Shown piece after piece: positions 8,350 to 49,800 of a stretch of 64,000 nucleotides of DNA. The stretch is from Styela clava. Its lineage: Eukaryota; Chordata; Ascidiacea; Stolidobranchia; Styelidae. Numbering within the stretch: the first letter of the stretch is position 1; the number at the start of each line of letters is the position of its first letter. The notes under the pieces are model-generated. The model searched no databases and was not told the DNA's origin. It worked only from the letters and a program-made list of their open reading frames with translations. A program made the position numbers and the translations under genes. The stretch lies in contig NC_135261.1 of assembly GCF_964204865.1 (NCBI RefSeq), positions 12,586,001-12,650,000 of the forward strand, in the 5' to 3' direction.

Positions 8350-9299
8350 TTGTGTCAGACGAATTGGGATTGTTCACTTTTTCCAGATTTATTTTTTGTT
8401 CTATATTTCTGTACTGACATATGATCTTGTTACATGTGGGGTTTCTAAAACTAGTGGGCAATAAATTTAGAGAATATAATTTTTATATATCTGAAAGAAC
8501 TTACCAATTGAGAACACATACAAATTGAGACTTAAAAATATATAAATGTGAGAGTTAGATACAATATGGTTAAATCGTTCACAGGTTCTCAAATTATCGA
8601 TGATAAACCGCAATGACACGATACAATGATCGTGTGTGAAAGACAATTTATAAAAATTTGATTTGATACACAGCGGTATAACCGTTAGATAAGTTAAACA
8701 ATAACTCTTTTCAAAAACGGTGTGGTTTATTAAAATCCATTGTCTATGTAAACAGTTAACAAGACAAGACTCGTCAGACGAATGTTAAACATGAAGCGGA
8801 TAAACAATACTTACAATTACAAAGGTCACTGACCCTACGGTCCCATTTTAAATAATAAGTCATTGTCTGGAATTATAATCTTGCAATTATTTTTATACAA
8901 CCCAACGGCCAGAGGGAATTAGGCAGATTATTAAAAAAGTATTAGATATGAAATATAGTCGTAAAGTATTTGAGAAAATAGGAATTGATGAGACTTAATA
9001 ACGTTCATTCGTTTGGGAAGTTATAGAATGCGTTATAATACTTCAAAATTAATCACCATCATGATCAAAACAAATCACCTTCCACGCGCGCAAACGTTTT
9101 GTTATATTATTTTACAAGAAGTTAAATATTATGGACTTGTCTGGAGACGTGTCATTTAAAAGCGGATTCGAAGAAGGGATTTGAGACAAATGCCAATTAT
9201 TCTCCAAAAATAATAATCCTCAATTTTTTTTATACAAAGAAAGCAACGAACGAAGGGAATTGCGAAAAATAGAAAGTTAACCGCAACATAACAGTGGGC

Positions 9300-9410
9300 G
9301 AATATATATATATATATCCGTATAATATATAATAATAAAATATATAATAATATATATAATAATATAATATATAATATAATAATATAATAATATATATATA
9401 TATATCCTAT
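9300..9410. repeat. AT-rich microsatellite (TA / TAA repeats)
   Basis: About 110 bp composed almost only of TA, ATA and AATA units, interrupting an array subrepeat between its GTGGGCGAAT and CCGTAAAAGATTTGAG words. The homologous site at about 12781 lacks the expansion. The same tract recurs at 31578-31688 through the segmental duplication. Confidence 0.85.
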
Positions 9411-45100: not shown

Positions 45101-46829
45101 GTTCCTCGAGGCTACGCGCCATTTTCTCGTAGTTGAGCTGTAATATTAGTGCAGAGTGTTAATTTCACTTATTTTAAATCTACCGAAAATGTGTCCAGAA
45201 TTTGCTGACGTTTTACTCACTTTAGCTTTGGTAACACTTTCAACGTTGGCAGCGAGATCATCAATTTCCATTTTCATTTCGCTCTTTTCTTTTTCCAATT
45301 TCTGTTTGACTCTTTGCAAATTATCGACTTGTTCGCTCATTTCAGCACTTGAATCAGCATGTTTCTTACGCAATGTTGAAACCGTTGCTTCGTGAGAAAG
45401 ATTAGATTCTTCAAACTCACGGCGAAGTTTAGAGAATTCTGCCTCGCGACGCTTATTGAGCTCAACCTGGAAAATGAGTATTATCATTAGTTCATATTTG
45501 TGTTGGTACTTTTCATGAATTCAATCAACAATAGCACTTACCTGAGCAGCAGTGGCACCACCTGCTTCTTCAAGTCGTTCACTTAATTCTTCCAACTCTC
45601 TTGAAAGATCAGCTCTTTGCTTTTCTACTTTTGCTCTTGCTGCACGTTCAGCTTCAAGTTCTTCTTCGAGTTCCTCAATACGAGCTTGTAGTTCTTTGAT
45701 TTTCTTCTGAAGTTGCATAACAAGAGCTTGTTCATCTTCAAGTTTAGTTGCAAGTTGACTGTATTCAAATTCTTGCTTCTTCAATTTCTCTTCCAATCTC
45801 TGCTTATCGTTTTCAAGATCCATGACTGTTTCTTGAGTAAGTCTCAAATCTCCTTCTAACTTTCTCTTAGTTCTCTCCAGATCCATGCGAAGTTTCTTTT
45901 CTTGTTCGAGAGATGCTTCAAGCTAGAAATAGAATATCGGCAATTAGCAACTAATATTGCTCTGAAAATTTAACTGATATTGTAAACAAAAAAAATCACA
46001 TACATCATCAACTTGTTGTTCAAGTTTTGCTTTTTGCTTAGTAAGACTGTTGACTTTGTCTTCTTCTCCTTGCAAATCATCCAATGTTTGTTGATGTGCT
46101 TCTTGAAGAGCTTTCTTTTCTTTTTGAAGTTTTGCGATCTGTTCATCTTGGGATGCTAGTTCTTCTTGTAAATTTTTCAACTGTTTTTAAAAATATTACA
46201 TATAGAATATTCGGTTCAGCCACAAATACGATTCTACAAATAATATATGATATACATACCTTGTTTTCAGTCGCGTGTTTTTCTTTCTCCACTTTAGCAA
46301 GAGTGATTTCAAGATCATCAATATCTTTCTTTAATTCGGAGCATTCGTCTTCTAGCTTGCGTTTCTTAGAAACCAATTCATTGTTCAATTCTTCTTCATC
46401 TTCTAGTCTCTCTTGTGTTTCCTTGATTTTTCCGTCTAATTCAACTTTTGTTCTAATAAGTTGATCGCAACGATCTTCAGCATCGTCAATTCTATCTTGT
46501 TCCTGTCAAAGAAAAAAATACCTTTAATTTGATAAATCCTATGTTTTACACGCATCCACGTGTAGGTACTTACAGACTGCAGCTGCAAAACCAAATCGTT
46601 CTTTTCTTGGATGAGAGAAACTTGAGATTCTTCAAGTTCCTTTCGTCTCTTAGATTCTTTTTCTAAGTTAGTTTTGAGATCTTCATTTTCGGCTTCTAAT
46701 TGTTCAAGTTCTTTTGCGGCTTCAGCAGTTTGAAGGAGTGGTTTGATCTTGAACATAAGTTTCATCCATTCCCAGTCACGTACACCAAAGAAAGCACGAA
46801 GATTAGATTGAAGGACGCGGACTGCAACT
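42173..46829 (-). other. Gene A rod (coiled-coil) exons and terminal exon
   Basis: After P838 the protein is a continuous alpha-helical coiled coil with heptad hydrophobics and alternating charge clusters (for example [35 protein letters not shown]), ending in a short tailpiece ARDM. The terminal coding exon 42508-42173 has its stop at 42179-42181 only 6 nt before a splice donor (GAAGCAAG|GTATGT). The last intron therefore lies in the 3' UTR, too close to the stop to be expected to trigger nonsense-mediated decay. The 3' UTR exon runs from 42093 to about 41940. Confidence 0.9.
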
Positions 46830-49800
46830 CTAATAAATAAGTATCATATTGATAAGAACTGTAAAAATGGTTATACCATGCAAGATATATTGGTTAACCT
46901 AGTACCTTCTTTCGATGAGTTTATTGTATTCAATTCTCATCAGTTTACCGCGCATACGAGCTTGGATAAGTTTGAAGATGGAGGACAATTTGTTGTCACG
47001 AAGTTCTTCCAAAACACCCAACATACCAGCACGGAAGAAAACCTGAATGTATTTACATACGTTAATTTTTGTTGCTGTTTAATGGAAAAATAAAAATGTA
47101 CAAGTTACGAAAACACCTGGAGAATATAGAATTTCTGCAATTCTTGTCACCATTATTTAATAATACCAATTATATTAAATAAGCATTTAATGTGCTGACC
47201 TTAGTATGACCTAACTTGTATTTTTCGTGATCGATGCCTTCAAGAGATGTGAGAATCTTTTCGGAAGCTTTCTTGCTGTCCAAGAACTGACCATCGGGAA
47301 CGGCATTTGGATTGAGAATACGATATCTTTGCTTGAAATCACCATAAGGAAGTCTGTTGGGGAAACCTTTGCGGCAAATACGAATACCTTCCAACACACC
47401 ATTACAACGAAGCTGATGTAAAACGACATGAGGATCCATAACTCCTGGAGTTTTTGTTTCATTAGGAACAATGCAACGGACGAAATGAGGAGCAGTAGAT
47501 CTATGAAATATTTTTGTTAGATGAAATCCCGAATTATTGAATAACGAACTAAATTAGATACAAATATTTGATACTTACCTCAGATTAGTCATAAGTTTGT
47601 TCAAGCTCTCTCTGTGCATGGAAGATACAGTGTTGAAAGAACCTCCCTTCTTTCTCTTTCCACCAGATTTTGCTGCTGCAGCAGCTTCTTCTGGGCCCAT
47701 ATACCCTTCCCAAATAGTTTGCATGAGTTTTAAGGATGACTTTTTGTACAAGTCCACAACGCTGCTGTTAAGTGGTTCCTTGTTCTTCTCAAGCCAATCA
47801 GTAATGCTGTAGCCAACCTATAATACAAATTAATACGATATTTTATTTTGAATATGACATTTTCAGCACGATTTGAAAAATCATGAAAATCGATCCAACT
47901 TACGGTTCCAGCGTAATGATGAAGTTCGAAGTGAGATTCGAATTTTGTTTTCTTGATTGGCTTTCCGAATGCTTTCGTTTTGCCCAAATGATTTTGGTAC
48001 AATTTGTCCATGAACGACTTGTCAGTGGCTTTCGGGAACATGCATTCTTCTTCGAGGATGGACATGATTCCAAGAGGCTGATGAAAAAATACGGATAACA
48101 ATTTATATCAACAGTTTGGGAATTGGTTTATTGAACGTCGCTTTGTGAGTACCAACCTTCTCGATAAGTTCGATGCAAGCAGCCAAATCCATACCGAAAT
48201 CAATGAAAACCCAATCAATTCCTTCCTTTTTGTATTCTTCTTGTTCAAGAACGAACATGTGATGGTTGAAAAATTGTTGCAATTTTTCATTGGTGAAGTT
48301 AATGCAAAGTTGTTCGAAGCTGTTAAACTGAAAAATCAAAATTCTAATAATAGTATGTTAAGTTGCACAATGTAGGCTGTAATTAGAAAAATTTGAAAAC
48401 TCACGTCAAAAATTTCAAAACCAGCAATATCGAGTACACCAATGAAATAACTTCTTGGCAGTTTAGTGCTGAGACTATTGTTGATGATTTTGACCAACCA
48501 GTTGAAATGTTTTTCGAAAACACCTTTGCTCAATCCGCCAACACCGTATGTAACTTGTGGAACAGTTTGTCCTTTTGTTACGTATTCGTTTCCAACTTTT
48601 ACGCGTGGATGGCACAAGTACTTGAGAAAATCGGCAGAGTTGAGGCCGAACAAATATGCAACTTTGTCGGCATCTGAAAGCGATGAATAGCGTTGAGAAC
48701 ATTTTATACACTAAACTGAAACACTGTTTACAACGTCAATAATGCTATGTATCAACCTTCTGTGCCATCAGGTTCAGCTTGTTCCTCGCGTTGTTTGTTT
48801 TTGAACTTCATGTTTTGTTGGTGCATAATACCAGCCATGATTCGATAGATTCCACTAACTTCTTCCGGTGTGAAACCAAGAACTTTAAAAGCATCCTGTT
48901 ACATAAAATATATTAGACGGTTGTAAAAAAATGTATATATCAAGAAAAAATACTAGAAATTGAATACACAAACAATAATGTCTCACGTCAGTTAAAATTA
49001 ATTCTTCTCCGTCATCGAGATTGTTGACGGTAACCACTCCTTGACTGATGGATTTATAGTCATAAGGATCTTTCGTCAGTAGAAGTTGATCTATGAATCA
49101 AAGTTGAGATATGCAGTTATTTGAAATTATGAAAAAAAAGACAAAGTGACAGATGTCATATATATGTGAGATATATATATACCTATGAGTTCAGGTTTTG
49201 ATCCAGAGATGAGCTGATAAAAGATATGATAATTTCTCTCTCCCCCTTGTTGCCAAATGACACGAGATTTTTCAAGGAGATCTACAAAAAGAATACAAGT
49301 TAAAAATTACTTTGAATCTTACAATGCTGATGTAGATATACTCAAGGATTATGTCAGTACTCACAATGCTCAATATCTCCAGATGCAAGACTTCCGGTAC
49401 TTCCAAAGTGAATTCGGATGAATTTTCCCTGAAATAAAATATTGACATTATAGTTATATTGTATTGAATCACCGAGAGGAGAAACAATAAAAATATTTTA
49501 GACTTACAAATCGAGAGGAGTTGTCATTTCTTACAGTCTTCGCGTTACCAAACGCTTCCATAGCAGGGTTGCATTGGACGATTTGATCTTCAAGTGTTCC
49601 CTAAAAATACAAATGATGAACAATTATATCAAGGGAAATTAAATACTTTACAGTTTTCTACGACTCGCGCCTGTTCGATGGTTCCATCGGTAAATATAAA
49701 ACATTTTGCTTGCATCGCAACTTCTGAATTATATTAACCAGTGCAACACGCCTTAAGTTGTAGTGTAGCAAGATCCTGGTTTCTAACATGTTATTCAATA

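What the first reader, a model, noticed from the sequence alone, without database searches (positions are those of the whole stretch)
8979..48914. 17.66-kb near-perfect duplication containing most of a myosin gene
8979-26636 and 31257-48914 differ at only about three bases by eye, even in introns, transposons and a TA microsatellite. Functional constraint cannot explain that. Either the duplication is extremely recent (or homogenised), or one copy is a haplotype or graph-traversal artefact of assembly. The choice decides whether the genome has one or two MHC 3' halves here.
Basis: partly seen in the sequence, partly recalled or inferred. Interest (0 to 1): 0.8.

Follow-up and report, generated by a model that had tools for sequence, protein, structure and literature searches.

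The report
Very young duplicated muscle-myosin gene fragment
A 17.7-kb piece of chromosome carrying most of a muscle-myosin gene sits twice in a row almost without differences, most likely a real and very young duplication that left one headless, 5'-truncated gene copy beside a cluster of intact myosin genes; it is an ordinary kind of event and still needs a read-level check.

Summary
8979-26636 and 31257-48914 align without a gap over 17,658 bp with 4 substitutions, all outside the mapped exons. The two junctions differ. J1 (26636/26652) has a 15-bp filler and no homology; J2 lies in a 94-bp tract (31257-31350) identical in two repeat copies. This fits an end-joining tandem duplication followed by unequal crossing-over with an unduplicated allele better than a haplotype join or graph loop. 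There is no N in the surrounding 260 kb, and the J1 junction matches full-length once in the assembly. Copy 1 lacks the first nine mapped coding exons and cannot make a working motor; copy 2 has all mapped exons. It belongs to a cluster of six such myosin genes; dS is 0 for copy 1/copy 2 and 0.25-0.60 for the other 20 pairs. Read depth, zygosity and true copy number could not be tested. I judge a real, very young, possibly segregating duplication about 70% likely. It is ordinary in kind.

The parts
8979..26636 (.). Copy 1 (A1) of the duplicated segment
   Evidence: 4 mismatches, 0 indels against 31257-48914
31257..48914 (.). Copy 2 (A2) of the duplicated segment
26637..26651 (.). J1: 15-bp filler between the end of A1 and the start of T'; no 10-bp or longer part of it occurs elsewhere in the window on either strand
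   Evidence: the junction has one full-length match in the assembly
26652..31256 (.). T': third copy of 14290-18894 (also 36568-41172 in A2), 6 substitutions, 0 indels
14290..18894 (.). T: the part of A1 that is copied as T'
31257..31350 (.). J2: 94-bp tract identical to 8979-9072 and 18895-18988, inside which the sequence switches from T' to A2
19904..26617 (-). 5'-truncated myosin heavy chain copy (mapped exons e10-e26 plus four small exons); e01-e09, with the start codon, P-loop and switch I (motif labels recalled), are absent
42182..50899 (-). Myosin heavy chain gene with all mapped exons (e01-e26 plus four small exons)
57781..64000 (+). Next paralogue (G3), divergently oriented; its last mapped exon ends beyond the window at C16:12652919
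15826..18874 (.). hAT-like insertion with 8-bp target-site duplication TCGTAGAG (15818-15825 / 18875-18882); by offset also at 28188-31236 and 38104-41152; shared by all three copies, so older than the duplications
   Evidence: family label recalled
9409..15822 (.). Older tandem repeat of about 3.4 kb downstream of the gene (9409-12433 vs 12788-15822, 91.9%), holding decayed copies of the last myosin exon at 10089-10349 and 13482-13743

Best explanation
A real, very young segmental duplication in a muscle-myosin gene cluster, probably made in two steps. Step 1: a roughly 12.3-kb tandem duplication of 14290-26636, joined by end-joining with a 15-bp filler (J1). Step 2: unequal crossing-over (non-allelic homologous recombination) inside a 94-bp identical tract of older, about 92% similar repeats (18895-18988 against 8979-9072), between the duplicated chromosome and an unduplicated one. 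That extends the copied part to 17.66 kb and joins it to the intact 5' half of the gene without a second J1. Result: one gene with all mapped exons (A2) and one 5'-truncated copy (A1) without start codon, P-loop or switch I, hence a likely pseudogene with no motor activity. Shown: junction sequences, nesting, truncation. Inferred: the order of events and the partner chromosome. Not known: zygosity and real copy number. The 0.7 is for the duplication being real; within it I put the two-step route at about 0.4, one-event template switching at about 0.2 and other routes at 0.1.
For: J1 has a 15-bp filler and no homology; J2 lies in a 94-bp identical tract, the second longest (after 133 bp) in the roughly 1.3-kb homology of the two repeats. 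T' carries 6 private substitutions in 4,605 bp at sites where A1 and A2 agree (6 of 6), against 4 in 17,658 between A1 and A2 (Fisher p 0.0076), so T' probably split off first. All 10 differences are substitutions, with no indel, in sequence with 9 long homopolymers and AT-rich runs; long-read consensus errors are mostly indels (recalled). Of the 4 A1/A2 sites, 19755 looks derived in A1 and 23908 in A2; 20954 and 22613 could not be polarised. No N in 260 kb. The A side of J1 is found at 100% only in A1 and A2, and elsewhere at 90% or less (13 of 13 candidates scored). Two other perfect tandem duplications, short enough for one long read, lie about 88-96 kb from the end of A2 (932 bp with 12 bp between copies; 520 bp with a 2-bp overlap). 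dS is 0 for A1/A2 against 0.25-0.60 for the other 20 pairs.
Against: No reads, depth or second assembly. The first 10,776 bp have no difference, and T' being the odd one at 6 of 6 sites is also what a second traversal of one locus would give. The sequencing technology is inferred, not known. Organism and heterozygosity are unknown, so the argument from allelic divergence is indirect. A 94-bp identical tract is short for such exchange (recalled). A reciprocal product or the 12.3-kb intermediate allele could not be looked for.
Confidence: 0.7

Rival explanations
1. Assembly artefact: one locus traversed twice, or two haplotypes concatenated, so the genome has one 3' half here and the four sites are heterozygous sites.
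For: 17.66 kb with 4 differences and a 10.8-kb identical run; T' differs from both copies at 6 of 6 sites while they agree. False duplications remain even in Vertebrate Genomes Project assemblies, and there the copies are most often separated by a gap but sometimes joined by unsupported sequence (PMC9516828, abstract and passages seen).
Against: The same paper lists gaps between the copies as a primary mark of false duplication; there is none here. Two unrelated false joins would be needed: one without homology and with filler, and one on 94 identical bases, far below the overlap long-read assemblers use (recalled). If J1 and J2 are both in reads, A must lie on both sides of T' in one molecule. 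If the species is as polymorphic as Botryllus (k-mer heterozygosity 3.63%, PMC12448946, passages seen), alleles would differ at hundreds of sites, not 4; whether it is, is unknown.
Confidence: 0.15
2. Real duplication made in one replication-based event with two template switches (26636 to 14290, then 18.9 kb to 9.0 kb) instead of two successive events. (Its odds are part of the 0.7 of the best explanation.)
For: The short insert T' between a no-homology and a homology junction is a recalled mark of template switching.
Against: T' should then be no more diverged than A2; it is about 5.8 times more (6/4,605 vs 4/17,658, Fisher p 0.0076), unless the copying was error-prone.
Confidence: 0.2
3. 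Older duplication recently homogenised by gene conversion.
For: Differences sit only in the last 6.9 kb of 17.7 kb (0 in 10,776 against 4 in 6,882; Fisher p 0.023 for a split chosen after seeing the data).
Against: No diverged remnant at the edges: identity runs up to J1 and to the J2 tract; the other cluster members are not homogenised (dS 0.25-0.60).
Confidence: 0.08
4. The same junctions reflect more copies than shown: a longer tandem array with a 22,278-bp period collapsed to about 1.8 units, or an extrachromosomal circle A-J1-T'-J2 beside a single-copy chromosome.
For: The adjacencies left flank-A, A-J1, J2-A and A-5'gene fit these layouts equally well (inference).
Against: Linear duplication is the simplest; the four sites would let both copies be told apart.
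Confidence: 0.07

Closest known systems
Recent tandem segmental duplication / copy-number variant by end-joining and non-allelic homologous recombination
   Same: Head-to-tail arrangement, near-identity over non-coding DNA, one filler junction and one homology junction
   Different: Nested: a 4.6-kb, more diverged partial copy separates the two long copies; the crossover uses only 94 identical bases within about 92% repeats
False duplication in assemblies (PMC9516828, abstract and passages seen)
   Same: Near-identical neighbouring copies on one scaffold
   Different: No gap, two structured junctions, substitutions only; depth, read pairs and k-mers not testable here
Clusters of muscle myosin heavy chain genes (six tandem genes in Lottia, PMC3912159; a set of five sarcomeric-like genes in Ciona, PMC6589888; passages seen; vertebrate MYH clusters recalled)
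   Same: Six sarcomeric-type genes in about 83 kb
   Different: Mixed orientations (-,+,+,-,-,+) and a fresh 5'-truncated seventh copy

Membership tests
Segmental duplication (usual criterion, recalled: at least 1 kb, at least 90% identity) | Length and identity | tested here: met
   17,658 bp, 4 mismatches
Tandem duplication by end-joining | Junction without homology, filler bases | tested here: met
   J1, 15-bp filler, no 10-bp or longer part elsewhere in the window
Non-allelic homologous recombination product | Switch inside a tract shared by both parents | tested here: met
   94-bp identical tract in homologous repeats
Non-allelic homologous recombination product | Reciprocal product or intermediate allele in the population | not testable with these tools
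   only one assembly, no reads
False assembly duplication | Gap between the copies | tested here: not met
   no N in C16:12.53-12.79 Mb; the source says false copies are sometimes joined without a gap
False assembly duplication | Reduced depth, discordant reads, haploid k-mers | not testable with these tools
   no reads
Functional sarcomeric myosin heavy chain (copy 1) | Complete motor with P-loop and start codon | tested here: not met
   exons e01-e09 not found at A1
Functional sarcomeric myosin heavy chain (copy 2) | Motor and tail exons open, sarcomeric class | tested here: met
   30 of 30 mapped exon pieces without stop; a 408-aa motor part scores best with Myosin-7 and Myosin-6 (672 bits at best), then striated 'myosin head' entries I recall as scallop (578), then non-muscle Myosin-9 (420) and smooth muscle myosin 11 (405) (best 60 of 150 shown); full splicing and expression not tested
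hAT transposon (insert 15826-18874) | 8-bp target-site duplication and short terminal inverted repeats (criteria recalled) | tested here: met
   TCGTAGAG on both sides; ends share GGTTCTCAAA in inverted orientation, seen by eye
hAT transposon (insert 15826-18874) | hAT transposase | tested here: not met
   two ORFs inside, 16369-16722 and 16924-17256, matched no Pfam family at E 0.1; the rest of the insert was not scanned, so it may be non-autonomous or decayed

The most novel reading that the evidence does not exclude
The truncated copy is transcribed from the copied 3' flank (T') and makes a headless, rod-bearing myosin that acts on thick filaments, so that a duplication still segregating in the population changes muscle dosage or contractility: a gene-family member caught at birth.
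Probability: 0.04. Interest if true: 0.6.

Novelty: new member of a known kind. Interest (0 to 1): 0.3.

Why it matters
If real, it is a copy-number event seen almost at birth inside a multigene muscle-myosin cluster, with both junctions still legible, which suits study of how such clusters grow and shed fragments. If artefactual, it would give a false seventh myosin gene in annotation. Either way, gene counts for this locus should treat copy 1 as a 5'-truncated fragment.

Tried and rejected
Transposon capture as the cause of the spacer: rejected. The hAT-like insertion lies wholly inside T, T' and the A2 copy with the same site duplication, so it is older, and J1 is not at its end. Sister-chromatid unequal exchange for step 2: rejected by inference, since it would leave a second J1 before the 5' half of copy 2. 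Identifying the species by mitochondrial COX1: no match in the assembly. Estimating heterozygosity from unplaced contigs: the first 3 kb of 4 of 5 small contigs sampled (of 379 contigs) are a 51-bp satellite and the fifth reads N; none gave allelic divergence, and the search of one of them against the assembly did not complete. Base rate of near-perfect duplications elsewhere in the genome: not obtained. tRNA and Rfam scans of the window: nothing. Pfam on ten window ORFs: apart from the myosin ORFs at 58134-58457 and 19901-20287, one sub-threshold hit only. Paper searches with the exact terms for a myosin rod protein from an internal promoter, and for filler junctions, gave 0 papers. PMC11494272 (a tunicate assembly note) was looked at in passages and not used.
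Full report
OBSERVATION. The two segments align over 17,658 bp with no gap and 4 substitutions. Runs of identity between the differences are 10,776, 1,198, 1,658, 1,294 and 2,728 bp. All four sites lie outside the mapped exons: 19755 is 149 bp beyond the last mapped codon, 20954 is at +7 after a mapped exon, 22613 lies between exons, and 23908 is at -6 of an acceptor. The coding sequence of the exon pieces compared is identical over 4,149 of 4,149 nt (the four small exons were not in that comparison but are 100% in both copies at protein level).

ANATOMY. Reading left to right: left flank; A1 (8979-26636); a 15-bp filler (26637-26651); T' (26652-31256); A2 (31257-48914); then the 5' half of the myosin gene. 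T' is a copy of 14290-18894 with 6 substitutions and no indel. The sequence agrees with the 18.9-kb version up to 31350 and with the 9.0-kb version from 31257, so the switch lies in 94 bp shared by both. These two places belong to older repeats, about 92% alike, downstream of the gene. A 381-bp query over J2 has one full-length perfect match in the assembly, the window itself; the T places of A1 and A2 match it at 96% (40 of 1,427 candidates scored, 34 of the 40 being dispersed copies of an element that fills the query's first 137 or so bases). A 301-bp query over J1 has one full-length match; its A side is found at 100% only in A1 and A2, and elsewhere at 90% or less; its T side is at 100% in T of A1 and of A2 (13 of 13 candidates scored; that search skips very common words).

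GENES. The window is part of a 21.4-Mb contig (C16) of a 376.6-Mb assembly in 379 contigs. In 12.53-12.79 Mb there are seven myosin heavy chain copies: A1 (-, exons e10-e26 only), A2 (-), G3 (+), G4 (+), G5 (-), G6 (-) and G7 (+). Four further small exons are open in all seven. Each of the six longer copies shows all 30 mapped pieces without stops, some a residue short at one end of the match; I did not splice full coding sequences, so 'intact' means this. The 21 pairwise comparisons give dS 0 for A1/A2 and 0.25-0.60 for the other 20, with dN at most 0.008: old paralogues under strong constraint and one newborn. The A1 break lies 19 bp upstream of exon e10, so A1 keeps that acceptor but loses exons e01-e09, with the start codon and the GESGAGKT stretch that I recall as the P-loop. 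A 408-aa motor part scores best against Myosin-7 and Myosin-6 (up to 672 bits), ahead of striated entries I recall as molluscan (578) and of non-muscle (420) and smooth muscle (405) myosins. I therefore think of a non-vertebrate chordate, perhaps a tunicate, but this is inference, and the COX1 search found nothing.

MECHANISM. J1 has the look of end-joining with filler; J2 has the look of homologous exchange between repeats. T' is more diverged (6/4,605) than A1 from A2 (4/17,658; Fisher p 0.0076), and at all six T' sites A1 and A2 agree. The simplest history is a 12.3-kb tandem duplication and later an unequal exchange with an unduplicated chromosome. An exchange between two duplicated sisters would have left a second J1 before the 5' half of the gene, which is not there (inference). 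One-event template switching is the main mechanistic rival. Where it could be polarised, 19755 looks derived in A1 (the two older repeat copies carry the A2 base), 23908 in A2 (five paralogues carry the A1 base), and 15491 in T'; 2 of 4 A1/A2 sites and 5 of 6 T' sites stayed open.

REAL OR ARTEFACT. No reads were available, so this stays a judgement. Against artefact: there are no gaps, while PMC9516828 (abstract and passages) names gaps between the copies, reduced depth and discordant pairs as marks of false duplication; only the first could be tested, and the paper adds that false copies are sometimes joined by unsupported sequence. Two false joins of different character would be needed. All ten differences are substitutions although homopolymers and AT runs are present. 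For artefact: the long identical run, and T' being the odd one out, are also what a re-traversed locus would show. The small contigs sampled are satellite (4 of 5) or read N (1 of 5) and gave no allelic divergence. In the tunicate Botryllus heterozygosity is 3.63% (PMC12448946, passages); if this species is similar, 0.02% is far below allelic divergence, which argues against concatenated haplotypes and suggests a duplication young enough to be segregating. But step 2 as I propose it needs a partner allele almost identical to the duplicated one, which would be unusual in so polymorphic a species; this tells against the exchange having been between unrelated alleles.

KNOWN CONTEXT. Sets of muscle myosin genes are known in many animals, including six in tandem in Lottia (PMC3912159, abstract and passages) and five sarcomeric-like genes in Ciona, three of them apparently restricted to embryonic and larval tail muscle (PMC6589888, passages). 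I found no report of this duplication; the library searches that bear on it were (listings), and the species is not known to me.

VERDICT. Observation confirmed. Best reading: a real, very young, nested segmental duplication yielding a headless myosin fragment. Ordinary in kind, modest interest, pending read-level proof.

Noticed in passing
G000:C16:12628182-12710968 (window 42182 onwards and L015-L021): Cluster of six sarcomeric-type myosin heavy chain genes with all mapped exons, in mixed orientation; proteins nearly identical but dS 0.25-0.60.
   Followed up: partly
L022: C16:12723139-12724070 / 12724083-12725014: Perfect 932-bp tandem duplication with 12 bp between the copies.
   Followed up: partly
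L022-L023: C16:12729562-12730081 / 12730080-12730599: Perfect 520-bp tandem duplication with a 2-bp overlap at the junction.
   Followed up: partly
L023: C16:12732391-12735595: Tandem array with a period of about 193 bp, with inverted relatives at 12725329-12727596 (L022).
   Followed up: no
window 10089-10349 and 13482-13743 (and 32367-32627, 35760-36021): Decayed extra copies of the last myosin exon in roughly 3.4-kb tandem repeats downstream of the gene.
   Followed up: partly
window 6878-7181 and 7556-7857: Inverted pair of about 300 bp, 91% alike, possibly ends of a mobile element.
   Followed up: no
L030-L033 (contigs C100, C200, C300, C370): Unplaced 20-32-kb contigs whose first 3 kb are a 51-bp satellite.
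   Followed up: no
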